Of a stretch of DNA of 64,000 nt, positions 20,011 to 51,559 are shown in pieces. A program made the position numbers and the translations under genes. Source of the DNA: Kappaphycus alvarezii (lineage: Eukaryota > Rhodophyta > Florideophyceae > Gigartinales > Solieriaceae); NCBI GenBank assembly GCA_002205965.3, contig NADL03000525.1:62001-126000 (forward strand), written 5' to 3'. The notes under the pieces are model-generated. The model made no database searches, was not told where the DNA came from, and saw only the letters and a program-made list of their open reading frames with translations. How positions within the stretch are numbered: position 1 is the stretch's first letter; every line of letters begins with the position of its first letter.

Positions 20011-20426
20011 TGTCGTTGAAATCGGTTGATTTAGAACACTCTATCAGGATGCTTATCCTGACACTCCAGAGAGTGACGAGTATTGTTAGATGAAGGCAAC
20101 GGCACAAGTACTCCAAGAGTCCTGCCAGATTGGAGCGTAACCCCGTTCTGTTGCAAAAGTAAAACCTTACCCTTTTACTCAATTGAAGACCTAGAGAATA
20201 GACAGCCTAAGTATTCAATGCGGCGGCAATGCGGCGAGAGTTAGTCTGATGGTGGGCAGTCAGTTGCATTCTGACTGTCGGTCTATAATTCCAATTGAGT
20301 ACGTATGGGAAAGCGACGACCTTTCACGGAAAGAAGGCCATGTATACAGTAAATATTAGTGTCAACATATGACGAAGAAGAATCTTACAGTATGGACATT
20401 ACAGTTGACTTCCAGTTGCTTTCACA
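20011..20426 (-). repeat. LTR1, 3' LTR of unit A (left end of array)
   Basis: 416 bp, TGTCGTTG... to ...TTTCACA on the + strand. It differs from LTR5 by one missing A in an A run (CCAAGAG for CCAAAGAG, about 20116). The left flank is the TSD GACTG. Confidence 0.95.
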
Positions 20427-20436
20427 CTCCGCCCAA

Positions 20437-23400
20437 TCAGGACGTGAAAGTCGTGGCAGTACGATCAGGATGAGAATCCAATTCTTCAATGCGCGGGGTA
20501 CGCACAACCCACTGCTCAACGGTTCCTGACCAGCGACCAGTGTCCAGCAGCTCCTCCAGCGCAATACATCGGTTACGCTTTGTAAGACCATCGGCCGGGT
20601 TAACGTCGGTACGGATCCAACCAACGTTGCTAATTTCTTGTGCGGCGTAAGCTTCCCTAGCAGCACGAATGTCAATCATCAACCGTTTTTCAGTTGTCGT
20701 TGTGTTCTGACGATTATCTTGAAAAGAGCTTCCGAATCAGTCAACATGTTGAGCGGAATCCGTTGAGAGGTGATACTCTCCAGATCGTGGCGCAAGAGGT
20801 ACGAATAATCAAATCCATCCGCGAAAGAGTACATCTCGGCTCCCATGCTTGATCTGACCACCCTTTTCGATTGTAACTAGAGAAGTGCATAATGTTGTAT
20901 CGGTCAGTGTCATCAGTCAGGGTGATCAGGTATCCAAGTTGGGAAGAGTCATCGGGTTGTTAGCAAATGAAGCATCTACAAAGGCAACAACCTTCAGCTT
21001 ATCGCGATGGAGACGGTGTTGGCGAATACCTCGATTGGGAGTCGCGTGAATGCGACGAATAATCGAATTGAGGTCGAGAACATCCTGACGACGCCATGAT
21101 GTCACCGTGACTTGTGCGGCGAAATTAACAGCAGAAGCGATGTCGGGTCTGGTATGCGTTAACCACGCTATTTCATGGCGCTTAGATCGAAACTCGGTGA
21201 AGCTGCAATCTTTGGGAAAACTGTAATTTTGCCGGCATAAGTGGATTGATGCAAGAGGTAGCCATCCTCAAAAGGCTCGATTTCAATTCCTGCAAACGTG
21301 AAAGAGTCATACACCCGTGGTTTCGACTCAAATCGGCGTTCCGTGAGCGTGCTGTCCGACCGAAAAACGTTCAGTACCAGCGCTGAGAGAATCATCAACA
21401 TAGGCTCCAACCAGTCCTACAAGCTCGTCGTGAACGTGTTTGACAAAAAAGGATAATCACCAGTAGATGGCTTCATCATCAGATCATGCGTGAGGTGGCG
21501 GAGAATGTCTGGTGCCAGTAATCCCCGGAGTCAGCCAAGCCATATAAAGGCTTCAGAAGCTTGAGAAGCTGGTCTTTGTTCAGACGAAACTCCTTAGTCG
21601 GTCGCGACATAAACGTCGCGCATCAGTCGTTGAGAGGATTGCAGTATGCCTGCGACACGTCCTGAGACCAAATACGAAATCCGAACACGGCGGCAAGCGC
21701 GATCAGAGTGCGGATAGAGCTTTGGCTATTGTGTACTAACATGTTCTTCTCAGCGTCAGTATGCCCTTGCACGACGAAACGTGCTTTGTACACCTCATTG
21801 CCAGTTCCAACATGCTTTATCGACAATACGAATCTCCCACCGAGGACGTTACCAGCAGGAGGGACGTCCTCTCGACATACGACTTCAAACACACCGCGGT
21901 CCATAAGGCCCTGTAATTCCTTCTGTATCGCATCAGAAAAGGATGCAGAATGACATCTAGGATCGCCAGGGTTGAGGACTTCTGTGATAAAGATCCCATG
22001 TACTGCAGGAGTCTGGAACTGGCTAGTAGCAGCAAGCAGCCGCTGGAGGTCCTTATCACCCCGTTCATGCGGGTCGGGCAGTATGTGAGAGATATTGTAA
22101 TCAGCGACTTTGTCAGGTCTTAGGACTGAGACCATTTTGCCCAATCTTAGTGACACGATATGGGCCGACGTAGCGCCCAGCGCGACGGCCGCCGCCAGAG
22201 GATTCCTCCTTGTAAACCAACACGTTGTCGCCTGGTTGTATATCATAGTGGGTAGCGGGAGGTAGTTTAGATTTGAGTGCACGCTGCACTCGCAACTCAG
22301 CAGTGATTGTCGCCATCTCACGGCGAGCCAAAGCGAGAGCCTTCATACGCGCCTTTTGCTGCGGCACGTCTGATGAGCGAACCGGGAAGGATGGGAACAT
22401 GCCATAAACAAGGTAAGTAGGGACGAGACCCTCGGGACCCATCGTATCATTGATCCCTTTGACCGCACACCGTAGGGCTACAGCGTCACGCATGTCAGGT
22501 AAGGATGTTTTGATGACTTGGTAGACACGACGGAGTGGGGCGTGATACCGTTCACCAACCCCAATGGCGTTGTGGGCCTCAACCCCAGCCAATTGCAGTT
22601 CAATACCATGTAATGATGTTAGCTCCTTCCATTTGGCAGAGGTAAACACAGAGCCCTGGTCCGTCTTGAGTTTGTTCGGATAACCGACGTACACTGATGC
22701 CCATGCAAGGATAAATGCGTCCCATATGGCCTCCGTGGACTGATTCTCCAGGAAAACGGCATTCTGGTAGTGTGTGCCAACGTCCACAACATGGAGAGCC
22801 GGACGATTACCAAGCCAAAAGACGTCTACGGCCACTTCGTGATTGAAGAGGATTTTGTCAGGCGGCATAGATACACGGAAACGGTATGGGCCCGTGGAAT
22901 GCGTCTGGCAGCCACGACATTGAGCACTAATCTTCTCGAGAAGACGGAGGGTATCGGGAGTAGTATCCGAGGGTCTAGCACGCTTCAGGAGTTTGTACAA
23001 TTTCCGGGAGGAAGGGTGGAAAAAGTGAAGGTGAAGCTTTCGCAATTCCGATGATGTGAAGAGGACTGCAGAGTTATCAAGTTCGACGAACATGTGACCC
23101 AGCTTACGGACAATAGGCAGCGTCCAGCCACCCGATTTGCAGAGCAAGACGTTGTCGACATTGTCGGCAACAAGCTGAGCCTTGTCCATGAGGTCCAAAC
23201 CTAATAAAAGTGGAATGTCGGCACCCACAACATCAATATGTATAGGAAGGAAGCCACCGGAGGGAATTGGAATCCTGAATTGCATAGTACCCAGGCTGTT
23301 CCTGTATCCATCCCCGAACTTGAATGTACGATGGGAGGTAGTCAAGCGAAATTTGATTCCCAGAGCACGAGCATAGGCTCGCGCCTGCCGTAGGCCACAA

Positions 23401-23660
23401 ACTGAACGTTGTGCCCCGCCATCAAGGCACATGCCAACAAAAGTCCTGTCATCGTAACGACGAACAGCATTCGTAGCCTTGACATGTAGTGCTTCATAAA
23501 CAATCCGTTGAGTAAAGCGTGGTACTATACGTTTATGTGCAATCCGACGACCTTGGACGCGGAGAGCTGGGAATGCGACTGCAGAGAAGCGTCTGTCGGG
23601 CGGTTTCTTAGGCCTAATGAACGAAGTTGGACGGCCATTGCAACTTCGACTTAAAAAACT
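20437..23660 (-). pseudogene. pol: Unit A pol, frameshifted
   Basis: This region corresponds to the unit D pol described at 36379-39620 and has the same domains: protease with CLDGGAQRSV, integrase with KTDQGSVFTS, RT with an intact YVDD codon run (21391-21402), and RNase H ending ...TFTS then TGA. Small indels relative to unit D break the frame at several places, including about 21495 (a missing base shared with B and C), about 21210-21225, about 20708 (TTCTGACG for TTCTTGACG) and about 22140. A 12-bp stretch (ACTGGTG-containing, about 21725) is also missing, removing a few residues of RT. It cannot give full Pol as read. Some indels may be consensus errors, because they are almost all one base in homopolymers. 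Confidence 0.85.
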
Positions 23661-25277
23661 TCATCTTCAGATGTTTCCGGGGTGGATGACTCAGAGCCCG
23701 GTGAGAGAGCGTTAGCCAGCGACGGTGGAGCGCCGCGATCAAAGTGAGAGGAGCTGTTGATGGCCAGTGAGTGGTAGGTATCGGAGATAGGCCGATCTGG
23801 CTCATCAGCGTCCGCGTCGGTATCATCATCACCAGATTCTTCATTTACGGGCAATGAGGGCCTCGTTTAGTTCGGTAGCAAACTCGACCAACGCGTCAGT
23901 GAGATTGATCCTAGACGAATTGCGACGACGTTCAAAAAATTTCGCCTTGTTACGTGCAATGCGTTCGTAGTCAAGCGGCTTCTTACAAGATCGAAGGGTG
24001 CAGCCCTTCTCCTCACAATTGAAGCATGAGTATGACGAGGACCGAGAATACTTCTCATCGACAGCCACTTGGCCCCAGTGAACCTTCTTACTGCGAGAGT
24101 GACGAGATGAAGGCTGTCTTGCAAAACGCCCCTGACCGCTGAAGTTGATATCGGTTGCAGGGGCAGAGCTGCCATCGTCAACCACGGAAATGTTAGTACC
24201 GTTCGACCATCTGTTCGGGCGATCTACTTCAATGGCGGGTGACATAGGGTGAGGACCATTTTTAAAACGATTAAACGTTTCAAATTGCTGTTGAGCCCTG
24301 CAGAAGGCAATTTTGGCCTGTGGATAACTCAAAACGTGATAATCATGTGCACCGGTGACGAAGACAGAAAATTGCCTACCGAGAGTGGCCTTTTGTAAAA
24401 CCTTCTTCATGTTATCATCGCCTCGAGAGGCGGGAATAGCCATCGGTGAAATTCTCTCAATTTCGCGCATAACTTTGTCGAGAGAATGAGCTTCATCCAA
24501 GCCTTCATTTTCAAACTGGCTGATATGAAGGGCATCCAATCGGTCTGACATACGTTGCATCTTATCAGGAGAAGCGAATGTGTCAGCAAACAACCTGGAT
24601 GTTCCCCCAATTCGTCTCTCCTTTGTCCGCTACATGATTATATAGTAGAACTGTAAAGCATGATCCCGTAGTCCATGATGCAAGTATTCGCCTCTCTGGG
24701 ACACCGTAGCTTTAACTTCATCACATATCTTTTGGTAACGGGAAATGAATTGGCACCAATCTTCCTCCATGCCACCAGAAAACATCATGTGCTTACTCTT
24801 GTATCTATGAGATATGGCGTTGGCCACCTTGTTCTCATACTGAGCGTCCGGGTGAGGTGGTGCCCCGGACAATCCTGTACGTGGTGCTTGGGGCATGGGC
24901 ATAGGATTGAATCCACATCGCCTGCCCTGATCAAATAAAGCCAATGCAGTCTTCCTGTCTTGCAAATGTTCAGTACCAGGCCATATCGCACATATGACTC
25001 TCCTCCCAATCAGTTTCGTAGACTCCACAGTACGTTCACAACTGATATTACGACTCTCAGAAAAACTCTCATTTTTTTTGTACAATTCATAATGGATGAC
25101 TACATCTGGACTGGCAATCAGTGATGGTGCTATTTCTTCACGCATTAGCTCCAACAGCTCTTGCCCTCTGTGTTCTTCTGTATCCTGAGCGTATCCTTGA
25201 AATATGTCGTACAGTACCCTTTGAGTAGGATTGTGGACCTCAATGGGTCCCCAAGGATGATCTTCGTTTGACGGCAT
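23651..25277 (-). pseudogene. gag: Unit A gag, frameshifted
   Basis: Same protein as the intact gag of units B, C and D, but broken. A 2-bp loss near 24598 (ACCTGGATG for ACCTGCGGATG), a 2-bp gain near 24640 (GATTATATAG), changes near 25063-25080 in an A/T run, and a one-base gain near 23845 (CATTTACGG) split it into pieces. The zinc-knuckle-like block and the terminal GTTTTTTAA are unchanged. The ATG would be at 25275-25277. Confidence 0.85.
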
Positions 25278-25320
25278 TTCTGGTAAAGTCAATACCAACC
25301 TATGCAACTTGATTCCGGAA

Positions 25321-25736
25321 TGTCGTTGAAATCGGTTGATTTAGAACACTCTATCAGGATGCTTATCCTGACATCCATAGAGTGACGAGTATTGTTAGAT
25401 GAAGGCAACGGCACAAGTACTCCAAAGAGTCCTGCCAGATTGGAGCGTAACCCCGTTCTGTTGCAAAAGTAAAACCTTACCCTTTTACTCAATTGAAGAC
25501 CTAGAGAATAGACAGCCTAAGTATTCAATGCGGCGGCAATGCGGCGAGAGTTAGTCTGATGGTGGGCAGTCAGTTGCATTCTGACTGTCGGTCTATAATT
25601 CCAATTGAGTACGTATGGGAAAGCGACGACCTTTCACGGAAAGAAGGCCATGTATACAGTAAATATTAGTGTCAACATATGACGAAGAAGAATCTTACAG
25701 TATGGACATTACAGTTGACTTCCAGTTGCTTTCACA
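25321..25736 (-). repeat. LTR2, shared by units A and B
   Basis: 416 bp. It has a private variant at about 25370-25380 (GACATCCATAGAG where the others read GACACTCCAGAGAG), so it is not a copied consensus of the neighbouring LTRs. Confidence 0.95.
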
Positions 25737-25745
25737 CTCCGCCAA

Positions 25746-28700
25746 TCAGGACGTGAAAGTCGTGGCAGTACGATCAGGATGAGAATCCAATTCTTCAATG
25801 CGCGGGGTACGCACAACCCACTGCTCAACGGTTCCTGACCAGCGACCAGTGTCCAGCAGCTCCTCCAGCGCAATACATCGGTTACGCTTTGTAAGACCAT
25901 CGGCCGGGTTAACGTCGGTACGGATCCAACCAACGTTGCTAATTTCTTGTGCGGCGTAAGCTTCCCTAGCAGCACGAATGTCAATCATCAACCGTTTTTC
26001 AGTTGTCGTTGTGTTCTTGACGATTATCTTGAAAAGAGCTTCCGAATCAGTCAACATGTTGAGCGGAATCCGTTGAGAGGTGATACTCTCCAGATCGTGG
26101 CGCAAGAGGTACGAATAATCAAATCCATCCGCGAAAGAGTACATCTCGGCTCCCATGCTTGATCTGACCACCCTTTTCGATTTGTAACTAGAGAAGTGCA
26201 TAATGTTGTATCGGTCAGTGTCATCAGTCAGGGTGATCAGGTATCCAAGTTGGGAAGAGTCATCGGGTTGTTAGCAAATGAAGCATCTACAAAGCAACAA
26301 CCTTCAGCTTATCGCGATGGAGACGGTGTTGGCGAATACCTCGATTGGAGTCGCGTGAATGCGACGAAATCGAATTGAGGTCGAGAACATCCTGACGACG
26401 CCATGATGTCACCGTGACTTGTGCGGCGAAATTAACAGCAGAGCGATGTCGGGTCTGTATGCGTTAACCACGCTATTTCATGGCGCTTAGATCGAAACTC
26501 GGTGAAGCTGCAATCTTGGAAGAACTGTAATTTTGCCGGCTAAGTGGATTGATGCAAGAGGTAGCCATCCTCAAAAGGCTCGATTTCAATTCCTGCAAAC
26601 GTGAAAGAGTCATACACCCGTGGTTTCGACTCAAATCGGCGTTCCGTGAGCGTGCTGTCCGACCGAAACGTTCATACCAGCGCTGAGAGAATCATCACAT
26701 AGGCTCCAACCAGTCCTACAAGCTCGTCGTGAACGTGTTTGACAAAAAGGATAAATCACCAGTAGATGGCTTCATCATCAGATCATGCGTGAGGTGGCGG
26801 AGAATGTCTGGTGCCAGTAATCCCCGGAGTCAGCCAAGCCATATAAAGGCTTCAGAAGCTTGAGAAGCTGGTCTTTGTTCAGACGAAACTCCTTAGTCGT
26901 CGGACATAAACGTCGCGCATCAGTCGTTGAGAGGATTGCAGGTATGCCTGCGACACGTCCTGAGACCAAATACGAAATCCGAACACGGCGGCAAGCGCGA
27001 TCAGAGTGCGGATAGAGCTTTGGCGGAGACTGGTGCTATTGTGTACTAACATGTTCTTCTCAGCGTCAGTATGCCCTTGCACGACGAAACGTGCTTTGTA
27101 CACCTCATTGCCAGTTCCAACATGCTTTATCGACAATACGAATTCTCCCACCGAGGACGTTACCAGCAGGAGGGACGTCCTCTCGACATACGACTTCAAA
27201 CACACCGCGGTCCATAAGGCCCTGTAATTCCTTCTGTATCGCATCAGAAAAGGATGCAGAATGACATCTAGGATCGCCAGGGTTGAGGACTTCTGTGATA
27301 AAGATCCCATGTACTGCAGGAGTCTGGAACTGGCTAGTAGCAGCAAGCAGCCGCTGGAGGTCCTTATCACCCCGTTCATGCGGGTCGGGCAGTATGTGAG
27401 AGATATTGTAATCAGCGACTTTGTCAGGTCTTAGGACTGAGACCATTTTGCCCCGAATCTTAGTGACACGATATGGGCCGACGTAGCGCCCAGCGCGACG
27501 GCCGCCGCCAGAGGATTCCTCCTTGTAAACCAACACGTTGTCGCCTGGTTGTATATCATAGTGGGTAGCGGGAGGTAGTTTAGATTTGAGTGCACGCTGC
27601 ACTCGCAACTCAGCAGTGATTGTCGCCATCTCACGGCGAGCCAAAGCGAGAGCCTTCATACGCGCCTTTTGCTGCGGCACGTCTGATGAGCGAACCGGGA
27701 AGGATGGGAACATGCCATAAACAAGGTAAGTAGGGACGAGACCCTCGGGACCCATCGTATCATTGATCCCTTTGACCGCACACCGTAGGGCTACAGCGTC
27801 ACGCATGTCAGGTAAGGATGTTTTGATGACTTGGTAGACACGACGGAGTGGGGCGTGATACCGTTCACCAACCCCAATGGCGTTGTGGGCCTCAACCCCA
27901 GCCAATTGCAGTTCAATACCATGTAATGATGTTAGCTCCTTCCATTTGGCAGAGGTAAACACAGAGCCCTGGTCCGTCTTGAGTTTGTTCGGATAACCGA
28001 CGTACACTGATGCCCATGCAAGGATAAATGCGTCCCATATGGCCTCCGTGGACTGATTCTCCAGGAAAACGGCATTCTGGTAGTGTGTGCCAACGTCCAC
28101 AACATGGAGAGCCGGACGATTACCAAGCCAAAAGACGTCTACGGCCACTTCGTGATTGAAGAGGATTTTGTCAGGCGGCATAGATACACGGAAACGGTAT
28201 GGGCCCGTGGAATGCGTCTGGCAGCCACGACATTGAGCACTAATCTTCTCGAGAAGACGGAGGGTATCGGGAGTAGTATCCGAGGGTCTAGCACGCTTCA
28301 GGAGTTTGTACAATTTCCGGGAGGAAGGGTGGAAAAAGTGAAGGTGAAGCTTTCGCAATTCCGATGATGTGAAGAGGACTGCAGAGTTATCAAGTTCGAC
28401 GAACATGTGACCCAGCTTACGGACAATAGGCAGCGTCCAGCCACCCGATTTGCAGAGCAAGACGTTGTCGACATTGTCGGCAACAAGCTGAGCCTTGTCC
28501 ATGAGGTCCAAACCTAATAAAAGTGGAATGTCGGCACCCACAACATCAATATGTATAGGAAGGAAGCCACCGGAGGGAATTGGAATCCTGAATTGCATAG
28601 TACCCAGGCTGTTCCTGTATCCATCCCCGAACTTGAATGTACGATGGGAGGTAGTCAAGCGAAATTTGATTCCCAGAGCACGAGCATAGGCTCGCGCCTG

Positions 28701-28973
28701 CCGTAGGCCACAAACTGAACGTTGTGCCCCGCCATCAAGGCACATGCCAACAAAAGTCCTGTCATCGTAACGACGAACAGCATTCGTAGCCTTGACATGT
28801 AGTGCTTCATAAACAATCCGTTGAGTAAAGCGTGGTACTATACGTTTATGTGCAATCCGACGACCTTGGACGCGGAGAGCTGGGAATGCGACTGCAGAGA
28901 AGCGTCTGTCGGGCGGTTTCTTAGGCCTAATGAACGAAGTTGGACGGCCATTGCAACTTCGACTTAAAAAACT
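25746..28973 (-). pseudogene. pol: Unit B pol, frameshifted in the RT half
   Basis: Protease, integrase and the start of RT read in one frame from the T6 shift site to about 27140, where an extra T (ACGAATTCTCCC) shifts the frame inside RT. Left of that there are many one-base losses, including one in the YVDD codons (ATCATCACATA, about 26690-26700), in the RNase H lead-in (about 26270-26450), and the base loss shared with A and C near 26795. The last 150 codons of RNase H are intact again to the TGA at 25746-25748. Errors are clustered in the 3' half of the element only. Confidence 0.85.
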
Positions 28974-30589
28974 TCATCTTCAGATGTTTCCGGGGTGGAT
29001 GACTCAGAGCCCGGTGAGAGAGCGTTAGCCAGCGACGGTGGAGCGCCGCGATCAAAGTGAGAGGAGCTGTTGATGGCCAGTGAGTGGTAGGTATCGGAGA
29101 TAGGCCGATCTGGCTCATCAGCGTCCGCGTCGGTATCATCATCACCAGATTCTTCATTACGGGCAATGAGGGCCTCGTTTAGTTCGGTAGCAAACTCGAC
29201 CAACGCGTCAGTGAGATTGATCCTAGACGAATTGCGACGACGTTCAAAAAATTTCGCCTTGTTACGTGCAATGCGTTCGTAGTCAAGCGGCTTCTTACAA
29301 GATCGAAGGGTGCAGCCCTTCTCCTCACAATTGAAGCATGAGTATGACGAGGACCGAGAATACTTCTCATCGACAGCCACTTGGCCCCAGTGAACCTTCT
29401 TACTGCGAGAGTGACGAGATGAAGGCTGTCTTGCAAAACGCCCCTGACCGCTGAAGTTGATATCGGTTGCAGGGGCAGAGCTGCCATCGTCAACCACGGA
29501 AATGTTAGTACCGTTCGACCATCTGTTCGGGCGATCTACTTCAATGGCGGGTGACATAGGGTGAGGACCATTTTTAAAACGATTAAACGTTTCAAATTGC
29601 TGTTGAGCCCTGCAGAAGGCAATTTTGGCCTGTGGATAACTCAAAACGTGATAATCATGTGCACCGGTGACGAAGACAGAAAATTGCCTACCGAGAGTGG
29701 CCTTTTGTAAAACCTTCTTCATGTTATCATCGCCTCGAGAGGCGGGAATAGCCATCGGTGAAATTCTCTCAATTTCGCGCATAACTTTGTCGAGAGAATG
29801 AGCTTCATCCAAGCCTTCATTTTCAAACTGGCTGATATGAAGGGCATCCAATCGGTCTGACATACGTTGCATCTTATCAGGAGAAGCGAATGTGTCAGCA
29901 AACAACCTGCGGATGTTCCCCCAATTCGTCTCTCCTTTGTCCGCTACATGGTTATAGTAGAACTGTAAAGCATGATCCCGTAGTCCATGATGCAAGTATT
30001 CGCCTCTCTGGGACACCGTAGCTTTAACTTCATCACATATCTTTTGGTAACGGGAAATGAATTGGCACCAATCTTCCTCCATGCCACCAGAAAACATCAT
30101 GTGCTTACTCTTGTATCTATGAGATATGGCGTTGGCCACCTTGTTCTCATACTGAGCGTCCGGGTGAGGTGGTGCCCCGGACAATCCTGTACGTGGTGCT
30201 TGGGGCATGGGCATAGGATTGAATCCACATCGCCTGCCCTGATCAAATAAAGCCAATGCAGTCTTCCTGTCTTGCAAATGTTCAGTACCAGGCCATATCG
30301 CACATATGACTCTCCTCCCAATCAGTTTCGTAGACTCCACAGTACGTTCACAACTGATATTACGACTCTCAAGAAAAACTCTCATTTTTTTGTACAATTC
30401 ATAATGGATGACTACATCTGGACTGGCAATCAGTGATGGTGCTATTTCTTCACGCATTAGCTCCAACAGCTCTTGCCCTCTGTGTTCTTCTGTATCCTGA
30501 GCGTATCCTTGAAATATGTCGTACAGTACCCTTTGAGTAGGATTGTGGACCTCAATGGGTCCCCAAGGATGATCTTCGTTTGACGGCAT
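28964..30589 (-). CDS. gag: Unit B gag, intact
   Basis: 541 codons from ATG (30587-30589), starting MPSNEDHPWGP, to TAA. It is essentially identical to gag of units C and D, with one substitution seen at about 29949 (ATGGTTATAG for ATGATTATAG). It would form the capsid shell around element RNA. It has the CX2CX4CX4C knuckle CFNCEEKGCTLRSC and an acidic, serine-rich C-terminus. An in-frame TTG lies ten codons upstream, but ATG is the better start. It ends in GTTTTTTAA, where a -1 slip gives access to pol. Confidence 0.88.
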   Translation of the reverse strand: MPSNEDHPWGPIEVHNPTQRVLYDIFQGYAQDTEEHRGQELLELMREEIAPSLIASPDVVIHYELYKKMRVFLESRNISCERTVESTKLIGRRVICAIWPGTEHLQDRKTALALFDQGRRCGFNPMPMPQAPRTGLSGAPPHPDAQYENKVANAISHRYKSKHMMFSGGMEEDWCQFISRYQKICDEVKATVSQRGEYLHHGLRDHALQFYYNHVADKGETNWGNIRRLFADTFASPDKMQRMSDRLDALHISQFENEGLDEAHSLDKVMREIERISPMAIPASRGDDNMKKVLQKATLGRQFSVFVTGAHDYHVLSYPQAKIAFCRAQQQFETFNRFKNGPHPMSPAIEVDRPNRWSNGTNISVVDDGSSAPATDINFSGQGRFARQPSSRHSRSKKVHWGQVAVDEKYSRSSSYSCFNCEEKGCTLRSCKKPLDYERIARNKAKFFERRRNSSRINLTDALVEFATELNEALIARNEESGDDDTDADADEPDRPISDTYHSLAINSSSHFDRGAPPSLANALSPGSESSTPETSEDEVF

Positions 30590-30632
30590 TTCTGGTAAAG
30601 TCAATACCAACCTATGCAACTTGATTCCGGAA

Positions 30633-31049: not shown

Positions 31050-31059
31050 CTCCGCCCAA

Positions 31060-34000
31060 TCAGGACGTGAAAGTCTGGCAGTACGATCAGGATGAGAATC
31101 CAATTCTTCAATGCGCGGGTCGCACAACCCACTGCTCAACGGTTCCTGACCAGCGACCAGTGTCCAGCAGCTCCTCCAGCGCAATACATCGGTTACGCTT
31201 TGTAAGACCATCGGCCGGGTTAACGTCGGTACGGATCCAACCAACGTGCTAATTCTTGTGCGCGTAAGCTTCCCTAGCAGCACGAATGTCAATCATCAAC
31301 CGTTTTTCAGTTGTCTTGTGTTCTTGACGATTATCTTGAAAAGAGCTTCCGAATCAGTCAACATGTTGAGCGGAATCCGTTGAGAGGTGATACTCTCCAG
31401 ATCGTGGCGCAAGAGGTACGAATAATCAAATCCATCCGCGAAAGAGTACATCTCGGCTCCCATGCTTGATCTGACCACCCTTTTCGATTTGTAACTAGAG
31501 AAGTGCAATAATGTTGTATCGGTCAGTGTCATCAGTCAGGGTGATCAGGTATCCAAGTTGGGAAGAGTCATCGGGGTTGTTAGCAAATGAAGCATCTACA
31601 AAGGCAACAACCTTCAGCTTATCGCGATGGAGACGGTGTTGGCGAATACCTCGATTGGGAGTCGCGTGAATGCGACGAATAATCGAATTGAGGTCGGAGA
31701 ACATCCTGACGACGCCATGATGTCACCGTGACTTGTGCGGCGAAATTAACAGCAGAAGCGATGTCGGGTCTGGTATGCGTTAACCACGCTATTTCATGGC
31801 GCTTAGATCGAAACTCGGTGAAGCTGCAATCTTTGGAAGAACTGTAATTTTGCCGGCATAAGTGGATTGATGCAAGAGGTAGCCATCCTCAAAAGGCTCG
31901 ATTTCAATTCCTGCAAACGTGAAAGAGTCATACACCCGTGGTTTCGACTCAAATCGGCGTTCCGTGAGCGTGCTGTCCGACCGAAAACGTTCAGTACCAG
32001 CGCTGAGAGAATCATCAACATAGGCTCCAACCAGTCCTACAAGCTCGTCGTGAACGTGTTTGACAAAAAAGGATAAATCACCAGTAGATGGCTTCATCAT
32101 CAGATCATGCGTGAGGTGGCGGAGAATGTCTGGTGCCAGTAATCCCCGGAGTCAGCCAAGCCATATAAAGGCTTCAGAAGCTTGAGAAGCTGGTCTTTGT
32201 TCAGACGAACTCCTTAGTCGGTCGGACATAAACGTCGCGCATCAGTCGTTGAGAGGATTGCAGGTATGCCTGCGACACGTCCTGAGACCAAATACGAAAT
32301 CCGAACACGGCGGCAAGCGCGATCAGAGTGCGGATAGAGCTTTGGCGGAGACTGGTGCTATTGTGTACTAACATGTTCTTCTCAGCGTCAGTATGCCCTT
32401 GCACGACGAAACGTGCTTTGTACACCTCATTGCCAGTTCCAACATGCTTTATCGACAATACGAATCTCCCACCGAGGACGTTACCAGCAGGAGGGACGTC
32501 CTCTCGACATACGACTTCAAACACACCGCGGTCCATAAGGCCCTGTAATTCCTTCTGTATCGCATCAGAAAAGGATGCAGAATGACATCTAGGATCGCCA
32601 GGGTTGAGGACTTCTGTGATAAAGATCCCATGTACTGCAGGAGTCTGGAACTGGCTAGTAGCAGCAAGCAGCCGCTGGAGGTCCTTATCACCCCGTTCAT
32701 GCGGGTCGGGCAGTATGTGAGAGATATTGTAATCAGCGACTTTGTCAGGTCTTAGGACTGAGACCATTTTGCCCGAATCTTAGTGACACGATATGGGCCG
32801 ACGTAGCGCCCAGCGCGACGGCCGCCGCCAGAGGATTCCTCCTTGTAAACCAACACGTTGTCGCCTGGTTGTATATCATAGTGGGTAGCGGGAGGTAGTT
32901 TAGATTTGAGTGCACGCTGCACTCGCAACTCAGCAGTGATTGTCGCCATCTCACGGCGAGCCAAAGCGAGAGCCTTCATACGCGCCTTTTGCTGCGGCAC
33001 GTCTGATGAGCGAACCGGGAAGGATGGGAACATGCCATAAACAAGGTAAGTAGGGACGAGACCCTCGGGACCCATCGTATCATTGATCCCTTTGACCGCA
33101 CACCGTAGGGCTACAGCGTCACGCATGTCAGGTAAGGATGTTTTGATGACTTGGTAGACACGACGGAGTGGGGCGTGATACCGTTCACCAACCCCAATGG
33201 CGTTGTGGGCCTCAACCCCAGCCAATTGCAGTTCAATACCATGTAATGATGTTAGCTCCTTCCATTTGGCAGAGGTAAACACAGAGCCCTGGTCCGTCTT
33301 GAGTTTGTTCGGATAACCGACGTACACTGATGCCCATGCAAGGATAAATGCGTCCCATATGGCCTCCGTGGACTGATTCTCCAGGAAAACGGCATTCTGG
33401 TAGTGTGTGCAAACGTCCACAACATGGAGAGCCGGACGATTACCAAGCCAAAAGACGTCTACGGCCACTTCGTGATTGAAGAGGATTTTGTCAGGCGGCA
33501 TAGATACACGGAAACGGTATGGGCCCGTGGAATGCGTCTGGCAGCCACGACATTGAGCACTAATCTTCTCGAGAAGACGGAGGGTATCGGGAGTAGTATC
33601 CGAGGGTCTAGCACGCTTCAGGAGTTTGTACAATTTCCGGGAGGAAGGGTGGAAAAAGTGAAGGTGAAGCTTTCGCAATTCCGATGATGTGAAGAGGACT
33701 GCAGAGTTATCAAGTTCGACGAACATGTGACCCAGCTTACGGACAATAGGCAGCGTCCAGCCACCCGATTTGCAGAGCAAGACGTTGTCGACATTGTCGG
33801 CAACAAGCTGAGCCTTGTCCATGAGGTCCAAACCTAATAAAAGTGGAATGTCGGCACCCACAACATCAATATGTATAGGAAGGAAGCCACCGGAGGGAAT
33901 TGGAATCCTGAATTGCATAGTACCCAGGCTGTTCCTGTATCCATCCCGAACTTGAATGTACGATGGGAGGTAGTCAAGCGAAATTTGATTCCCAGAGCAC

Positions 34001-34292
34001 GAGCATAGGCTCGCGCCTGCCGTAGGCCACAAACTGAACGTTGTGCCCCGCCATCAAGGCACATGCCAACAAAAGTCCTGTCATCGTAACGACGAACAGC
34101 ATTCGTAGCCTTGACATGTAGTGCTTCATAAACAATCCGTTGAGTAAAGCGTGGTACTATACGTTTATGTGCAATCCGACGACCTTGGACGCGGAGAGCT
34201 GGGAATGCGACTGCAGAGAAGCGTCTGTCGGGCGGTTTCTTAGGCCTAATGAACGAAGTTGGACGGCCATTGCAACTTCGACTTAAAAAACT
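31060..34292 (-). pseudogene. pol: Unit C pol, frameshifted
   Basis: Same architecture as unit D pol. The first break is a missing C at about 33945 (CATCCCGAAC), just after the protease active site. Others are at about 32771, 32207 (GACGAACTCC), 32118 (shared with A and B), 31843, 31697 (extra G), 31506 (extra A), and several near 31075-31260. The integrase core reads VVDVCTHYQ where A and B read VVDVGTHYQ, a substitution that sits exactly where unit D has a one-base loss (33410). YVDD is intact. Not translatable as read. Confidence 0.85.
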
Positions 34293-35908
34293 TCATCTTC
34301 AGATGTTTCCGGGGTGGATGACTCAGAGCCCGGTGAGAGAGCGTTAGCCAGCGACGGTGGAGCGCCGCGATCAAAGTGAGAGGAGCTGTTGATGGCCAGT
34401 GAGTGGTAGGTATCGGAGATAGGCCGATCTGGCTCATCAGCGTCCGCGTCGGTATCATCATCACCAGATTCTTCATTACGGGCAATGAGGGCCTCGTTTA
34501 GTTCGGTAGCAAACTCGACCAACGCGTCAGTGAGATTGATCCTAGACGAATTGCGACGACGTTCAAAAAATTTCGCCTTGTTACGTGCAATGCGTTCGTA
34601 GTCAAGCGGCTTCTTACAAGATCGAAGGGTGCAGCCCTTCTCCTCACAATTGAAGCATGAGTATGACGAGGACCGAGAATACTTCTCATCGACAGCCACT
34701 TGGCCCCAGTGAACCTTCTTACTGCGAGAGTGACGAGATGAAGGCTGTCTTGCAAAACGCCCCTGACCGCTGAAGTTGATATCGGTTGCAGGGGCAGAGC
34801 TGCCATCGTCAACCACGGAAATGTTAGTACCGTTCGACCATCTGTTCGGGCGATCTACTTCAATGGCGGGTGACATAGGGTGAGGACCATTTTTAAAACG
34901 ATTAAACGTTTCAAATTGCTGTTGAGCCCTGCAGAAGGCAATTTTGGCCTGTGGATAACTCAAAACGTGATAATCATGTGCACCGGTGACGAAGACAGAA
35001 AATTGCCTACCGAGAGTGGCCTTTTGTAAAACCTTCTTCATGTTATCATCGCCTCGAGAGGCGGGAATAGCCATCGGTGAAATTCTCTCAATTTCGCGCA
35101 TAACTTTGTCGAGAGAATGAGCTTCATCCAAGCCTTCATTTTCAAACTGGCTGATATGAAGGGCATCCAATCGGTCTGACATACGTTGCATCTTATCAGG
35201 AGAAGCGAATGTGTCAGCAAACAACCTGCGGATGTTCCCCCAATTCGTCTCTCCTTTGTCCGCTACATGATTATAGTAGAACTGTAAAGCATGATCCCGT
35301 AGTCCATGATGCAAGTATTCGCCTCTCTGGGACACCGTAGCTTTAACTTCATCACATATCTTTTGGTAACGGGAAATGAATTGGCACCAATCTTCCTCCA
35401 TGCCACCAGAAAACATCATGTGCTTACTCTTGTATCTATGAGATATGGCGTTGGCCACCTTGTTCTCATACTGAGCGTCCGGGTGAGGTGGTGCCCCGGA
35501 CAATCCTGTACGTGGTGCTTGGGGCATGGGCATAGGATTGAATCCACATCGCCTGCCCTGATCAAATAAAGCCAATGCAGTCTTCCTGTCTTGCAAATGT
35601 TCAGTACCAGGCCATATCGCACATATGACTCTCCTCCCAATCAGTTTCGTAGACTCCACAGTACGTTCACAACTGATATTACGACTCTCAAGAAAAACTC
35701 TCATTTTTTTGTACAATTCATAATGGATGACTACATCTGGACTGGCAATCAGTGATGGTGCTATTTCTTCACGCATTAGCTCCAACAGCTCTTGCCCTCT
35801 GTGTTCTTCTGTATCCTGAGCGTATCCTTGAAATATGTCGTACAGTACCCTTTGAGTAGGATTGTGGACCTCAATGGGTCCCCAAGGATGATCTTCGTTT
35901 GACGGCAT
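34283..35908 (-). CDS. gag: Unit C gag, intact
   Basis: 541 codons, ATG to TAA, apparently the same protein as gag of unit D. The leader from LTR4 is 43 nt. It has the same cysteine knuckle, acidic tail and GTTTTTTAA ending. Unlike the pol next to it, no indel is visible in 1.6 kb. This contrast argues that indels in pol are not simply random errors spread through the unit. Confidence 0.88.
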   Translation of the reverse strand: MPSNEDHPWGPIEVHNPTQRVLYDIFQGYAQDTEEHRGQELLELMREEIAPSLIASPDVVIHYELYKKMRVFLESRNISCERTVESTKLIGRRVICAIWPGTEHLQDRKTALALFDQGRRCGFNPMPMPQAPRTGLSGAPPHPDAQYENKVANAISHRYKSKHMMFSGGMEEDWCQFISRYQKICDEVKATVSQRGEYLHHGLRDHALQFYYNHVADKGETNWGNIRRLFADTFASPDKMQRMSDRLDALHISQFENEGLDEAHSLDKVMREIERISPMAIPASRGDDNMKKVLQKATLGRQFSVFVTGAHDYHVLSYPQAKIAFCRAQQQFETFNRFKNGPHPMSPAIEVDRPNRWSNGTNISVVDDGSSAPATDINFSGQGRFARQPSSRHSRSKKVHWGQVAVDEKYSRSSSYSCFNCEEKGCTLRSCKKPLDYERIARNKAKFFERRRNSSRINLTDALVEFATELNEALIARNEESGDDDTDADADEPDRPISDTYHSLAINSSSHFDRGAPPSLANALSPGSESSTPETSEDEVF

Positions 35909-35951
35909 TTCTGGTAAAGTCAATACCAACCTATGCAACTTGATTCCGGAA

Positions 35952-36368
35952 TGTCGTTGAAATCGGTTGATTTAGAACACTCTATCAGGATGCTTATCCT
36001 GACACTCCAGAGAGTGACGAGTATTGTTAGATGAAGGCAACGGCACAAGTACTCCAAAGAGTCCTGCCAGATTGGAGCGTAACCCCGTTCTGTTGCAAAA
36101 GTAAAACCTTACCCTTTTACTCAATTGAAGACCTAGAGAATAGACAGCCTAAGTATTCAATGCGGCGGCAATGCGGCGAGAGTTAGTCTGATGGTGGGCA
36201 GTCAGTTGCATTCTGACTGTCGGTCTATAATTCCAATTGAGTACGTATGGGAAAGCGACGACCTTTCACGGAAAGAAGGCCATGTATACAGTAAATATTA
36301 GTGTCAACATATGACGAAGAAGAATCTTACAGTATGGACATTACAGTTGACTTCCAGTTGCTTTCACA
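35952..36368 (-). repeat. LTR4, shared by units C and D
   Basis: 417 bp, TG...CA. It is 3' LTR for unit D and 5' LTR for unit C. Confidence 0.95.
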
Positions 36369-36376
36369 CTCCGCCC
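36369..36376 (-). promoter_or_regulatory. Polypurine tract of unit D
   Basis: On the - strand GGGCGGAG lies directly before the 3' LTR start TGTGAAAG and just after the pol stop. The spacing is right for plus-strand priming. Equivalent sites are in A, B (GGCGGAG) and C. Confidence 0.65.
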
Positions 36377-36378
36377 AA

Positions 36379-39300
36379 TCAGGACGTGAAAGTCGTGGCA
36401 GTACGATCAGGATGAGAATCCAATTCTTCAATGCGCGGGGTACGCACAACCCACTGCTCAACGGTTCCTGACCAGCGACCAGTGTCCAGCAGCTCCTCCA
36501 GCGCAATACATCGGTTACGCTTTGTAAGACCATCGGCCGGGTTAACGTCGGTACGGATCCAACCAACGTTGCTAATTTCTTGTGCGGCGTAAGCTTCCCT
36601 AGCAGCACGAATGTCAATCATCAACCGTTTTTCAGTTGTCGTTGTGTTCTTGACGATTATCTTGAAAAGAGCTTCCGAATCAGTCAACATGTTGAGCGGA
36701 ATCCGTTGAGAGGTGATACTCTCCAGATCGTGGCGCAAGAGGTACGAATAATCAAATCCATCCGCGAAAGAGTACATCTCGGCTCCCATGCTTGATCTGA
36801 CCACCCTTTTCGATTTGTAACTAGAGAAGTGCATAATGTTGTATCGGTCAGTGTCATCAGTCAGGGTGATCAGGTATCCAAGTTGGGAAGAGTCATCGGG
36901 GTTGTTAGCAAATGAAGCATCTACAAAGGCAACAACCTTCAGCTTATCGCGATGGAGACGGTGTTGGCGAATACCTCGATTGGGAGTCGCGTGAATGCGA
37001 CGAATAATCGAATTGAGGTCGAGAACATCCTGACGACGCCATGATGTCACCGTGACTTGTGCGGCGAAATTAACAGCAGAAGCGATGTCGGGTCTGGTAT
37101 GCGTTAACCACGCTATTTCATGGCGCTTAGATCGAAACTCGGTGAAGCTGCAATCTTTGGGAAGAACTGTAATTTTGCCGGCATAAGTGGATTGATGCAA
37201 GAGGTAGCCATCCTCAAAAGGCTCGATTTCAATTCCTGCAAACGTGAAAGAGTCATACACCCGTGGTTTCGACTCAAATCGGCGTTCCGTGAGCGTGCTG
37301 TCCGACCGAAAACGTTCAGTACCAGCGCTGAGAGAATCATCAACATAGGCTCCAACCAGTCCTACAAGCTCGTCGTGAACGTGTTTGACAAAAAAGGATA
37401 AATCACCAGTAGATGGCTTCATCATCAGATCATGCGTGAGGTGGCGGGAGAATGTCTGGTGCCAGTAATCCCCGGAGTCAGCCAAGCCATATAAAGGCTT
37501 CAGAAGCTTGAGAAGCTGGTCTTTGTTCAGACGAAACTCCTTAGTCGGTCGGACATAAACGTCGCGCATCAGTCGTTGAGAGGATTGCAGGTATGCCTGC
37601 GACACGTCCTGAGACCAAATACGAAATCCGAACACGGCGGCAAGCGCGATCAGAGTGCGGATAGAGCTTTGGCGGAGACTGGTGCTATTGTGTACTAACA
37701 TGTTCTTCTCAGCGTCAGTATGCCCTTGCACGACGAAACGTGCTTTGTACACCTCATTGCCAGTTCCAACATGCTTTATCGACAATACGAATCTCCCACC
37801 GAGGACGTTACCAGCAGGAGGGACGTCCTCTCGACATACGACTTCAAACACACCGCGGTCCATAAGGCCCTGTAATTCCTTCTGTATCGCATCAGAAAAG
37901 GATGCAGAATGACATCTAGGATCGCCAGGGTTGAGGACTTCTGTGATAAAGATCCCATGTACTGCAGGAGTCTGGAACTGGCTAGTAGCAGCAAGCAGCC
38001 GCTGGAGGTCCTTATCACCCCGTTCATGCGGGTCGGGCAGTATGTGAGAGATATTGTAATCAGCGACTTTGTCAGGTCTTAGGACTGAGACCATTTTGCC
38101 CCGAATCTTAGTGACACGATATGGGCCGACGTAGCGCCCAGCGCGACGGCCGCCGCCAGAGGATTCCTCCTTGTAAACCAACACGTTGTCGCCTGGTTGT
38201 ATATCATAGTGGGTAGCGGGAGGTAGTTTAGATTTGAGTGCACGCTGCACTCGCAACTCAGCAGTGATTGTCGCCATCTCACGGCGAGCCAAAGCGAGAG
38301 CCTTCATACGCGCCTTTTGCTGCGGCACGTCTGATGAGCGAACCGGGAAGGATGGGAACATGCCATAAACAAGGTAAGTAGGGACGAGACCCTCGGGACC
38401 CATCGTATCATTGATCCCTTTGACCGCACACCGTAGGGCTACAGCGTCACGCATGTCAGGTAAGGATGTTTTGATGACTTGGTAGACACGACGGAGTGGG
38501 GCGTGATACCGTTCACCAACCCCAATGGCGTTGTGGGCCTCAACCCCAGCCAATTGCAGTTCAATACCATGTAATGATGTTAGCTCCTTCCATTTGGCAG
38601 AGGTAAACACAGAGCCCTGGTCCGTCTTGAGTTTGTTCGGATAACCGACGTACACTGATGCCCATGCAAGGATAAATGCGTCCCATATGGCCTCCGTGGA
38701 CTGATTCTCCAGGAAAACGGCATTCTGGTAGTGTGTGCAACGTCCACAACATGGAGAGCCGGACGATTACCAAGCCAAAAGACGTCTACGGCCACTTCGT
38801 GATTGAAGAGGATTTTGTCAGGCGGCATAGATACACGGAAACGGTATGGGCCCGTGGAATGCGTCTGGCAGCCACGACATTGAGCACTAATCTTCTCGAG
38901 AAGACGGAGGGTATCGGGAGTAGTATCCGAGGGTCTAGCACGCTTCAGGAGTTTGTACAATTTCCGGGAGGAAGGGTGGAAAAAGTGAAGGTGAAGCTTT
39001 CGCAATTCCGATGATGTGAAGAGGACTGCAGAGTTATCAAGTTCGACGAACATGTGACCCAGCTTACGGACAATAGGCAGCGTCCAGCCACCCGATTTGC
39101 AGAGCAAGACGTTGTCGACATTGTCGGCAACAAGCTGAGCCTTGTCCATGAGGTCCAAACCTAATAAAAGTGGAATGTCGGCACCCACAACATCAATATG
39201 TATAGGAAGGAAGCCACCGGAGGGAATTGGAATCCTGAATTGCATAGTACCCAGGCTGTTCCTGTATCCATCCCCGAACTTGAATGTACGATGGGAGGTA

Positions 39301-39620
39301 GTCAAGCGAAATTTGATTCCCAGAGCACGAGCATAGGCTCGCGCCTGCCGTAGGCCACAAACTGAACGTTGTGCCCCGCCATCAAGGCACATGCCAACAA
39401 AAGTCCTGTCATCGTAACGACGAACAGCATTCGTAGCCTTGACATGTAGTGCTTCATAAACAATCCGTTGAGTAAAGCGTGGTACTATACGTTTATGTGC
39501 AATCCGACGACCTTGGACGCGGAGAGCTGGGAATGCGACTGCAGAGAAGCGTCTGTCGGGCGGTTTCTTAGGCCTAATGAACGAAGTTGGACGGCCATTG
39601 CAACTTCGACTTAAAAAACT
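36379..39620 (-). CDS. pol: Unit D pol: protease, integrase, RT, RNase H; one frameshift
   Basis: The frame opens right after a TGA at 39621-39623, nine bases before the end of the gag stop, and runs about 1080 codons to a TGA at 36379-36381. In order: a basic linker; protease with CLDGGAQRSVCG (about 39360-39390) and ADIPLLLGLDLMD; integrase with a zinc finger (LHFFHPSSRKLYKLL, QCRGCQTH) and DDE blocks VAVDVFWLG, KTDQGSVFTS and AIGVGERYHAPLRR; RT with [31 protein letters not shown] and YVDD (37336-37347); RNase H with FVDASFANN, SSMGAEMYS, MLTDSEALF and VNPADGLTKR. One base is missing near 38740 inside integrase (TGCAACG for TGCCAACG). Without it this would be the full replication enzyme set. 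The protease motif is DGG, not D-S/T-G. Confidence 0.9.
39611..39620 (-). promoter_or_regulatory. Gag-pol -1 frameshift site (T6 at gag stop)
   Basis: Read on the - strand, gag ends GAA GTT TTT TAA. In the -1 frame the preceding TGA (39621-39623) closes pol, so pol is open only from AGT TTT TTA AGT. The two frames share just this stretch, so any ribosomal shift must happen here. A P-site tRNA-Phe on TTT can re-pair on TTT one base back while the stop waits. The same sequence occurs in all four units (shift sites near 23651, 28964, 34283, 39611). Mechanism is inferred, not shown. Confidence 0.65.
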
Positions 39621-41236
39621 TCATCTTCAGATGTTTCCGGGGTGGATGACTCAGAGCCCGGTGAGAGAGCGTTAGCCAGCGACGGTGGAGCGCCGCGATC
39701 AAAGTGAGAGGAGCTGTTGATGGCCAGTGAGTGGTAGGTATCGGAGATAGGCCGATCTGGCTCATCAGCGTCCGCGTCGGTATCATCATCACCAGATTCT
39801 TCATTACGGGCAATGAGGGCCTCGTTTAGTTCGGTAGCAAACTCGACCAACGCGTCAGTGAGATTGATCCTAGACGAATTGCGACGACGTTCAAAAAATT
39901 TCGCCTTGTTACGTGCAATGCGTTCGTAGTCAAGCGGCTTCTTACAAGATCGAAGGGTGCAGCCCTTCTCCTCACAATTGAAGCATGAGTATGACGAGGA
40001 CCGAGAATACTTCTCATCGACAGCCACTTGGCCCCAGTGAACCTTCTTACTGCGAGAGTGACGAGATGAAGGCTGTCTTGCAAAACGCCCCTGACCGCTG
40101 AAGTTGATATCGGTTGCAGGGGCAGAGCTGCCATCGTCAACCACGGAAATGTTAGTACCGTTCGACCATCTGTTCGGGCGATCTACTTCAATGGCGGGTG
40201 ACATAGGGTGAGGACCATTTTTAAAACGATTAAACGTTTCAAATTGCTGTTGAGCCCTGCAGAAGGCAATTTTGGCCTGTGGATAACTCAAAACGTGATA
40301 ATCATGTGCACCGGTGACGAAGACAGAAAATTGCCTACCGAGAGTGGCCTTTTGTAAAACCTTCTTCATGTTATCATCGCCTCGAGAGGCGGGAATAGCC
40401 ATCGGTGAAATTCTCTCAATTTCGCGCATAACTTTGTCGAGAGAATGAGCTTCATCCAAGCCTTCATTTTCAAACTGGCTGATATGAAGGGCATCCAATC
40501 GGTCTGACATACGTTGCATCTTATCAGGAGAAGCGAATGTGTCAGCAAACAACCTGCGGATGTTCCCCCAATTCGTCTCTCCTTTGTCCGCTACATGATT
40601 ATAGTAGAACTGTAAAGCATGATCCCGTAGTCCATGATGCAAGTATTCGCCTCTCTGGGACACCGTAGCTTTAACTTCATCACATATCTTTTGGTAACGG
40701 GAAATGAATTGGCACCAATCTTCCTCCATGCCACCAGAAAACATCATGTGCTTACTCTTGTATCTATGAGATATGGCGTTGGCCACCTTGTTCTCATACT
40801 GAGCGTCCGGGTGAGGTGGTGCCCCGGACAATCCTGTACGTGGTGCTTGGGGCATGGGCATAGGATTGAATCCACATCGCCTGCCCTGATCAAATAAAGC
40901 CAATGCAGTCTTCCTGTCTTGCAAATGTTCAGTACCAGGCCATATCGCACATATGACTCTCCTCCCAATCAGTTTCGTAGACTCCACAGTACGTTCACAA
41001 CTGATATTACGACTCTCAAGAAAAACTCTCATTTTTTTGTACAATTCATAATGGATGACTACATCTGGACTGGCAATCAGTGATGGTGCTATTTCTTCAC
41101 GCATTAGCTCCAACAGCTCTTGCCCTCTGTGTTCTTCTGTATCCTGAGCGTATCCTTGAAATATGTCGTACAGTACCCTTTGAGTAGGATTGTGGACCTC
41201 AATGGGTCCCCAAGGATGATCTTCGTTTGACGGCAT
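39611..41236 (-). CDS. gag: Unit D gag, intact, structural protein of the array element
   Basis: 541 codons from ATG (41234-41236) to TAA (39611-39613). The N-terminal half has helix-rich, charged segments typical of capsid (TEEHRGQELLELMREEI, DWCQFISRYQKICDEVK). The knuckle CFNCEEKGCTLRSC is C-x2-C-x4-C-x4-C, with Cys where CCHC has His. A basic patch (RHSRSKKVHWGQV) precedes it. The tail is acidic and serine-rich (ESGDDDTDADADEPDRP). Start chosen at the first ATG, 43 nt from the LTR; an in-frame TTG ten codons upstream is possible. Gag should assemble cytoplasmic particles that hold element RNA and Gag-Pol. Identified by position, knuckle and linkage to pol; no sequence match to a named gag was made. 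Confidence 0.88.
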   Translation of the reverse strand: MPSNEDHPWGPIEVHNPTQRVLYDIFQGYAQDTEEHRGQELLELMREEIAPSLIASPDVVIHYELYKKMRVFLESRNISCERTVESTKLIGRRVICAIWPGTEHLQDRKTALALFDQGRRCGFNPMPMPQAPRTGLSGAPPHPDAQYENKVANAISHRYKSKHMMFSGGMEEDWCQFISRYQKICDEVKATVSQRGEYLHHGLRDHALQFYYNHVADKGETNWGNIRRLFADTFASPDKMQRMSDRLDALHISQFENEGLDEAHSLDKVMREIERISPMAIPASRGDDNMKKVLQKATLGRQFSVFVTGAHDYHVLSYPQAKIAFCRAQQQFETFNRFKNGPHPMSPAIEVDRPNRWSNGTNISVVDDGSSAPATDINFSGQGRFARQPSSRHSRSKKVHWGQVAVDEKYSRSSSYSCFNCEEKGCTLRSCKKPLDYERIARNKAKFFERRRNSSRINLTDALVEFATELNEALIARNEESGDDDTDADADEPDRPISDTYHSLAINSSSHFDRGAPPSLANALSPGSESSTPETSEDEVF

Positions 41237-41279
41237 TTCTGGTAAAGTCAATACCAACCTATGCAACTTGATTCCGGAA
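41237..41279 (-). promoter_or_regulatory. 43-nt leader of unit D (expected primer-binding region)
   Basis: On the - strand the LTR end ...AACGACA is followed by TTCCGGAATCAAGTTGC and then the gag ATG. There is no TGG directly after the LTR, so a standard tRNA 3'-end primer is not obvious. A half-tRNA or internal tRNA primer, as in some Ty1/copia elements, is possible. The same leader is found in all four units. Confidence 0.5.
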
Positions 41280-41696
41280 TGTCGTTGAAATCGGTTGATT
41301 TAGAACACTCTATCAGGATGCTTATCCTGACACTCCAGAGAGTGACGAGTATTGTTAGATGAAGGCAACGGCACAAGTACTCCAAAGAGTCCTGCCAGAT
41401 TGGAGCGTAACCCCGTTCTGTTGCAAAAGTAAAACCTTACCCTTTTACTCAATTGAAGACCTAGAGAATAGACAGCCTAAGTATTCAATGCGGCGGCAAT
41501 GCGGCGAGAGTTAGTCTGATGGTGGGCAGTCAGTTGCATTCTGACTGTCGGTCTATAATTCCAATTGAGTACGTATGGGAAAGCGACGACCTTTCACGGA
41601 AAGAAGGCCATGTATACAGTAAATATTAGTGTCAACATATGACGAAGAAGAATCTTACAGTATGGACATTACAGTTGACTTCCAGTTGCTTTCACA
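41280..41696 (-). repeat. LTR5, 5' LTR of unit D (right end of array)
   Basis: 417 bp and followed by the TSD GACTG. As transcribed (- strand) it holds an AATTATAG TATA-like element (about 41551-41560) and two perfect 7-bp hairpins: TCAGGAT/ATCCTGA with a 4-nt loop (41313-41330) and CAGTCAG/CTGACTG with a 7-nt loop (41527-41547). Transcription of the array would start here or in any of the internal LTRs. Confidence 0.95.
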
Positions 41697-51543: not shown

Positions 51544-51559
51544 GTTGTTGATCGGCATT

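What the first reader, a model, noticed from the sequence alone, without database searches (positions are those of the whole stretch)
20011..41696. Four-unit head-to-tail copia array with one outer target duplication
Five LTRs and four internal regions alternate exactly, and the only 5-bp duplication (GACTG) is outside the 21.7-kb block. This is not four independent insertions. It must be LTR-LTR unequal recombination after one insertion, integration of a concatemer (for example from 1-LTR circles or rolling-circle DNA), or an assembly artefact. Real four-unit arrays with shared LTRs are unusual.
Basis: partly seen in the sequence, partly recalled or inferred. Interest (0 to 1): 0.85.

Follow-up and report, generated by a model that had tools for sequence, protein, structure and literature searches.

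The report
Tandem array of one copia retrotransposon
Four head-to-tail copies of one jumping element sit behind a single insertion scar, a structure already known from other genomes, and the small differences between the copies look like leftover sequencing errors, so the exact copy number still needs long reads.

Summary
Five LTRs (416-417 bp) and four internal regions (4894-4911 bp) alternate from 20011 to 41696; the 5-bp duplication GACTG lies only outside. The element is Ty1/copia on the minus strand. Against unit 3, units 0-2 show 50 differences: 49 indels (43 of one base) and 1 substitution. Two older repeat pairs in the same window show 42 mismatches and 6 gap openings. So the units are virtually identical and the differences are most likely residual assembly errors, unevenly polished: 38 of 50 lie in the same third of the unit. 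Pol is broken in all four units, at different places.

Best reading: one insertion, then LTR-mediated expansion before the LTRs diverged. cDNA or circle recombination, multimer integration and assembly expansion are not excluded; the copy number four is unproven. LTR-retrotransposon tandems with shared internal LTRs are an established kind (PMC11899658: 266 candidates in a rice pangenome, the two detailed loci with an outer TSD; PMC7215508: Cassandra arrays of up to 12 units). The host is perhaps a red alga (weak). New member of a known kind.

The parts
20006..20010 (.). Target site duplication GACTG, left copy
20011..20426 (-). LTR 0 (3' LTR of the leftmost unit, read on the minus strand)
20427..25320 (-). 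Internal region of unit 0 (4894 bp); gag and pol frames broken
25321..25736 (-). Shared LTR 1
25737..30632 (-). Internal region of unit 1 (4896 bp); gag frame open, pol broken
30633..31049 (-). Shared LTR 2
31050..35951 (-). Internal region of unit 2 (4902 bp); gag frame open, pol broken
35952..36368 (-). Shared LTR 3
36369..41279 (-). Internal region of unit 3 (4911 bp); gag frame open, pol in two pieces, the fewest of the four
36379..38766 (-). 795-aa open frame of unit 3: part of the integrase core (rve, below Pfam cut-off) and copia-type reverse transcriptase RVT_2 (E 2.8e-21)
38580..39620 (-). 346-aa open frame of unit 3; first part of pol by tblastn of P0001; no Pfam match
39611..41299 (-). 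562-aa open frame of unit 3, gag-like (PF03732, E 7.3e-05, slightly below cut-off)
41280..41696 (-). LTR 4 (5' LTR of the rightmost unit)
41697..41701 (.). Target site duplication GACTG, right copy

Best explanation
A tandem LTR-retrotransposon locus. One copia element integrated at GACTG and made a 5-bp duplication (shown by the TG...CA ends and the outer TSD). While its LTRs were still identical, unequal homologous exchange between the LTRs of sister chromatids or homologues (417 bp of homology) gave LTR-int-LTR-int-LTR; further unequal exchange over the 5.3-kb unit gave the longer array (inferred). The small differences between units are mostly uncorrected sequencing errors, not divergence (strongly supported). 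That the array has two or more units is likely; that it has exactly four is not shown.
For: Exact alternation, shared LTRs, TSD outside only. The inner junctions keep the same LTR-internal boundaries, as homologous exchange requires. Near absence of substitutions: 0-3 mismatches per internal pair, 0-1 per LTR pair, so expansion followed insertion closely. Differences dominated by one-base indels, 36 of 43 next to an identical base against 43% of all bases; substitution:indel spectrum opposite to that of older repeats in the same window (p = 6e-20). Same architecture with an outer TSD at two rice loci, one of them spanned by 4 long reads (PMC11899658).
Against: Without true variants between units, nothing in the sequence separates chromosomal exchange from cDNA-level formation. 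No reads, second assembly or host genome could be examined (genome search did not complete). The residual errors suggest that this block was hard for the assembler or polisher.
Confidence: 0.5

Rival explanations
1. A real tandem made at cDNA level after the first insertion: linear cDNA or 1-LTR circles recombined with the resident element through LTR or internal homology, without integrase, each event adding a unit.
For: Predicts the same anatomy: one outer TSD, shared LTRs, identical units. PMC11899658 cites yeast work for it (Ty5 LTR-mediated tandem elements, ref. 22; integrase-independent pathway, ref. 23; neither paper read, ref. 22 not held).
Against: No direct evidence here for circles or active cDNA. 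As printed, all four pol frames are broken, though probably by sequencing errors.
Confidence: 0.17
2. One-step integration of a multimer (read-through transcript from a 1-LTR circle, template switching, or rolling-circle DNA) with a single TSD.
For: Explains a single TSD and identity of all units in one event. Transposition of tandem transcripts is proposed in the discussion of PMC11899658, concatenated cDNA in that of PMC7215508.
Against: Four units make 21.7 kb, a large load for a particle; PMC7215508 argues that compactness makes this less limiting for the small Cassandra. I saw no precedent for four full-length coding units in one step in the two papers read or in the listings, which is a narrow look.
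Confidence: 0.11
3. Assembly artefact: one ordinary element was unrolled several times by the assembler, and the unit-specific errors come from thinly or unevenly spread reads.
For: Units are identical apart from probable errors, as an unrolled loop plus uneven polishing would give. Differences concentrate in the same third of units 0-2 (38 of 50) while unit 3 has few private ones (2 of 49 raw events), so reads seem to have been shared unevenly among identical copies.
Against: The differences are private to single units (47 of 49 raw events: 15, 15, 15 and 2; 2 mixed), so a finished unit was not simply copied. A 417-bp LTR is easily spanned by long reads, which should keep a single-copy element single (general knowledge, not tested).
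Confidence: 0.2
4. The indels are real decay of old copies.
For: They break gag in unit 0 and pol in all four units. One 12-base difference is unlike a typical sequencing error.
Against: Two older repeat pairs in the same window have 42 mismatches and 6 gap openings; the six internal pairs of the array total 9 mismatches and 127 gap openings (pairs not independent). Counts against unit 3 (1 substitution, 49 indels) differ from the controls at p = 6e-20, and from the better-defined control pair alone (20:5) at p = 1e-12.
Confidence: 0.02

Closest known systems
Tandem LTR-retrotransposon loci of rice, Arabidopsis, almond and cotton (TLI1, TLI2, IDENTAM set; PMC11899658)
   Same: Alternating LTRs and internal regions with shared inner LTRs; at the two detailed loci an outer TSD given as 5 nt; read by the authors as one insertion
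   Different: TLI1 and TLI2 have two units. TLI1 units are less alike (internal 94%, LTRs 85-89%), TLI2 units 99%. 82% of the 28 clear rice cases are gypsy, and 10 of 28 have a perfect TSD. Here four copia units, not checked by reads
BARE1 three-LTR structures of barley (quoted in PMC7215508, its ref. 51, not read)
   Same: A full-length copia element in LTR-int-LTR-int-LTR form
   Different: Explained there by recombination between two neighbouring elements; two units
Cassandra (TRIM) long tandem arrays of plants (PMC7215508)
   Same: Alternating LTRs and internal domains, nearly identical units, up to 12 per array
   Different: Cassandra is small, non-coding and carries 5S RNA sequence; here coding units of 5.3 kb. 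TSDs are not discussed there (0 occurrences of the word TSD)
Yeast Ty5 tandem elements made by cDNA recombination (Ke and Voytas 1997, cited in PMC11899658; not read)
   Same: Tandem elements formed through the LTR
   Different: A yeast experiment; no evidence of cDNA recombination here
KERV megasatellite of kangaroos (Koga et al. 2023, cited in PMC11899658; not read)
   Same: Provirus-like units repeated with shared LTRs
   Different: Megasatellite at centromeres; here a short array behind one TSD

Membership tests
Tandem LTR-retrotransposon (shared-LTR array) | Alternation that starts and ends with an LTR, neighbouring units sharing one LTR | tested here: met
   5 LTRs, 4 internal regions, no extra bases at the junctions
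Tandem LTR-retrotransposon (shared-LTR array) | TSD outside the block and none inside (single insertion) | tested here: met
   GACTG at both outer edges; the 5-mers at the inner junctions are different
Tandem LTR-retrotransposon (shared-LTR array) | Presence in the genome confirmed by spanning reads or independent assemblies | not testable with these tools
   No reads held; own-genome search unanswered
Ty1/copia LTR retrotransposon | Integrase upstream of reverse transcriptase; RVT_2-type RT | tested here: met
   rve (residues 10-72, below Pfam cut-off) before RVT_2 (316-533) in the 795-aa frame
Ty1/copia LTR retrotransposon | TG...CA LTR ends and a short TSD, as in LTR retrotransposons generally | tested here: met
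GalEa-like copia clade (known from red algae, PMC3587641) | Primer-binding site TGGTAGCAGAGC shared by GalEa1 and CoRex1-3 (not said to define the whole clade) | tested here: not met
   The bases after the 5' LTR are TTCCGGAATC (motif from passages of PMC3587641)
GalEa-like copia clade (known from red algae, PMC3587641) | RT/RNase H phylogenetic placement | not tested
   No GalEa reference sequences were fetched; the element is not filed there

The most novel reading that the evidence does not exclude
A four-unit copia multimer of about 21.7 kb that entered the chromosome in one integrase-mediated step, from a concatemer or a read-through transcript of a 1-LTR circle.
Probability: 0.11. Interest if true: 0.5.

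Novelty: new member of a known kind. Interest (0 to 1): 0.25.

Why it matters
If real, it adds a long copia example, possibly from a red alga, to a structure that PMC11899658 reviews from land plants, yeast, Drosophila and kangaroos. Its identical units make it a good locus in which to ask whether such arrays arise on the chromosome or at cDNA level. It is also a caution: in this block most differences between repeat units look like assembly errors and should not be read as divergence, age or decay.

Tried and rejected
Relatives in viral contigs: no match. In genome contigs: 11 pattern matches, none confirmed by tblastn. No tRNA gene by ARAGORN and no Rfam family at gathering threshold in the window. 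Ten flank open frames were scanned against Pfam: 3 gave an above-cut-off match (Integrase_H2C2, gag_pre-integrs, RVT_2), 1 a below-cut-off match only, 6 none; other flank frames were not scanned. No other copy of the LTR or internal region lies in the window (only 19- and 22-base LTR matches with E 0.26; the last query piece of that call overran into the right flank, an error of my script, and its rows are matches of the flank). Rejected: independent insertions (no inner TSD); real decay of the units (wrong mutation spectrum).

Counts that went through several versions: MAFFT gave 49 raw events, 11 of them read as substitution blocks, most of which I take for alignment shifts next to indels; pairwise alignment gave 7 substitutions among 135 differences over six internal pairs; for I merged events by hand to 42 and typed 3 substitutions and 39 indels myself; one search recounted by script against unit 3 (50 events, 1 substitution). 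In one search an event private to unit 3 is counted in each of the three comparisons. The second control pair (57661-57890 with 62337-62565) has no CA end or TSD at the match edges, so it is an older direct repeat that I take for LTRs; the first pair has TG...CA ends and a TSD.

Papers: eight searches. PMC11899658 and PMC7215508 were read as stated in the report, PMC3587641 in passages; all other papers were seen in listings only. The Ty5, Drosophila double-insertion and eccDNA papers are not held. The search on polishing of repeats gave nothing that I used, so that idea is inference.

Full report
Observation. Self-comparison of the window shows a block at 20011-41696 whose LTR starts lie 5310, 5312, 5319 and 5328 bases apart. 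It consists of five LTRs of 416 or 417 bp and four internal regions of 4894, 4896, 4902 and 4911 bp. All LTRs begin TGTCGTTGAAAT and end GTTGCTTTCACA. The four internal-to-LTR junctions are identical over the ten bases printed. GACTG lies directly outside both ends and at no inner junction.

What the element is. The coding strand is the minus strand. In unit 3 a 562-aa frame is gag-like (PF03732, E 7.3e-05, just under the Pfam cut-off), a 346-aa frame has no Pfam match, and a 795-aa frame holds part of an integrase core (rve, under the cut-off) followed by RVT_2 (E 2.8e-21). Integrase before reverse transcriptase and RVT_2 make it Ty1/copia. A search with the 795-aa frame found 154 proteins, 120 listed, among a capped set of 7999 candidates; the best, P0001, is 59% identical over 97% of the query. 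The only one listed with an organism name is P0022, called a Chlamydiota MAG protein, which I take for eukaryotic contamination of that bin. A neighbouring open frame (49355-50458) has 8 homologues; the only one with an organism name is from the red alga Chondrus crispus (43% identity over 46% of the query). The host may therefore be a red alga, but this is weak.

How the units differ. Against unit 3 the other three internal regions show 50 differences: 1 substitution and 49 indels, 43 of them of one base; 36 of the 43 stand next to an identical base, against 43% of all bases. In the six pairwise BLAST comparisons of internal regions there are 9 mismatches and 127 gap openings in all (pairs not independent). 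As a control for natural mutation, two older repeat pairs in the same window have 42 mismatches and 6 gap openings: 20 and 5 for 13930-14172 with 19747-19993, the LTRs of an older element with TSD AAATC; 22 and 1 for 57661-57890 with 62337-62565, which I take for LTRs. Fisher's test of 1:49 against 42:6 gives p = 6e-20, and against the first pair alone p = 1e-12. In a four-way alignment 47 of 49 raw events are private to one unit (15, 15, 15 and 2 for units 0 to 3) and 2 are mixed; 11 of the 49 were read there as substitution blocks, mostly alignment shifts by my judgement. This is the spectrum of residual long-read error, not of evolution. One 12-base deletion in unit 0 could be real.

Uneven polishing. 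38 of 50 events lie in the left third of the internal region (p = 8e-10 against an even spread): 10 of 17, 16 of 18 and 12 of 15 in units 0, 1 and 2, although these thirds recur 5.3 kb apart in the contig. A position effect along the contig would not repeat with the unit; polishing reads drawn to the cleanest of several identical copies would. This is an inference. tblastn with two related pol proteins gives 4, 3, 5 and 2 pieces (P0001) or 4, 4, 5 and 2 (P0003) in units 0 to 3, in changing frames and at different places. As printed, no unit has an intact pol, but the breaks are probably errors. The gag-like frame is open in units 1, 2 and 3 and split in unit 0.

Mechanism. A single outer TSD and shared LTRs mean one integration event at this site. 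Identity of all units means that expansion, whatever its route, came before LTR divergence. The most economical route is LTR-LTR unequal exchange from one unit to two, then exchange over whole units. Recombination of cDNA or 1-LTR circles into the resident copy predicts the same product, as does integration of a multimer, which I rate lower because of the size of four units. With no true variants the sequence cannot decide; the rice study could not decide either at its TLI2 locus (PMC11899658, discussion). An assembly that unrolled a single element or a shorter array remains possible: private errors speak against simple copying of one finished unit, but not against a wrong count.

Comparison with what is known. 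PMC11899658 (abstract, background, methods, results and discussion read) describes LTR-retrotransposon tandems with shared internal LTRs. Its two detailed loci have an outer TSD of 5 nt in the text (one figure legend says 4), and one is spanned by 4 long reads. It reports 74 candidates in one rice genome, 66 clearly LTR-related and 28 with a clear tandem structure, of which 10 have perfect TSDs; 266 candidates in a pangenome; 11 each in Arabidopsis and almond and 130 in cotton. PMC7215508 (abstract, discussion and passages read) describes Cassandra arrays of up to 12 units and quotes at least 4600 three-LTR structures of the copia element BARE1 in barley. The present case is a member of that kind.

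Scores. Interest 0.25: a clean and rather long example, with an instructive error signature, but of a known kind and with an unverified copy number.

Noticed in passing
window 13930-19993: Older LTR element: LTRs 89.5% identical, TG...CA ends, TSD AAATC on both sides, Integrase_H2C2 domain in the frame 17410-17973. A 17-bp minisatellite at 19441-19596 lies before its right LTR. The copia array begins 17 bases beyond its right end.
   Followed up: partly
window 57661-62565: Remains of a second copia element (gag_pre-integrase in the frame 59275-60228, RVT_2 in 61133-61903) between direct repeats 90% identical; no CA end or TSD at the repeat edges.
   Followed up: partly
window 49355-55800: GC-rich stretch with several overlapping open frames on both strands whose letters resemble non-LTR reverse transcriptases (my reading of the letters; no Pfam match for the four frames tested); homologues of one frame include a Chondrus crispus protein.
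   Followed up: partly
window 21725 (unit 0): A 12-base stretch present in units 1-3 is missing from unit 0; its length is a multiple of three, and unlike the other differences it may be a real variant.
   Followed up: no
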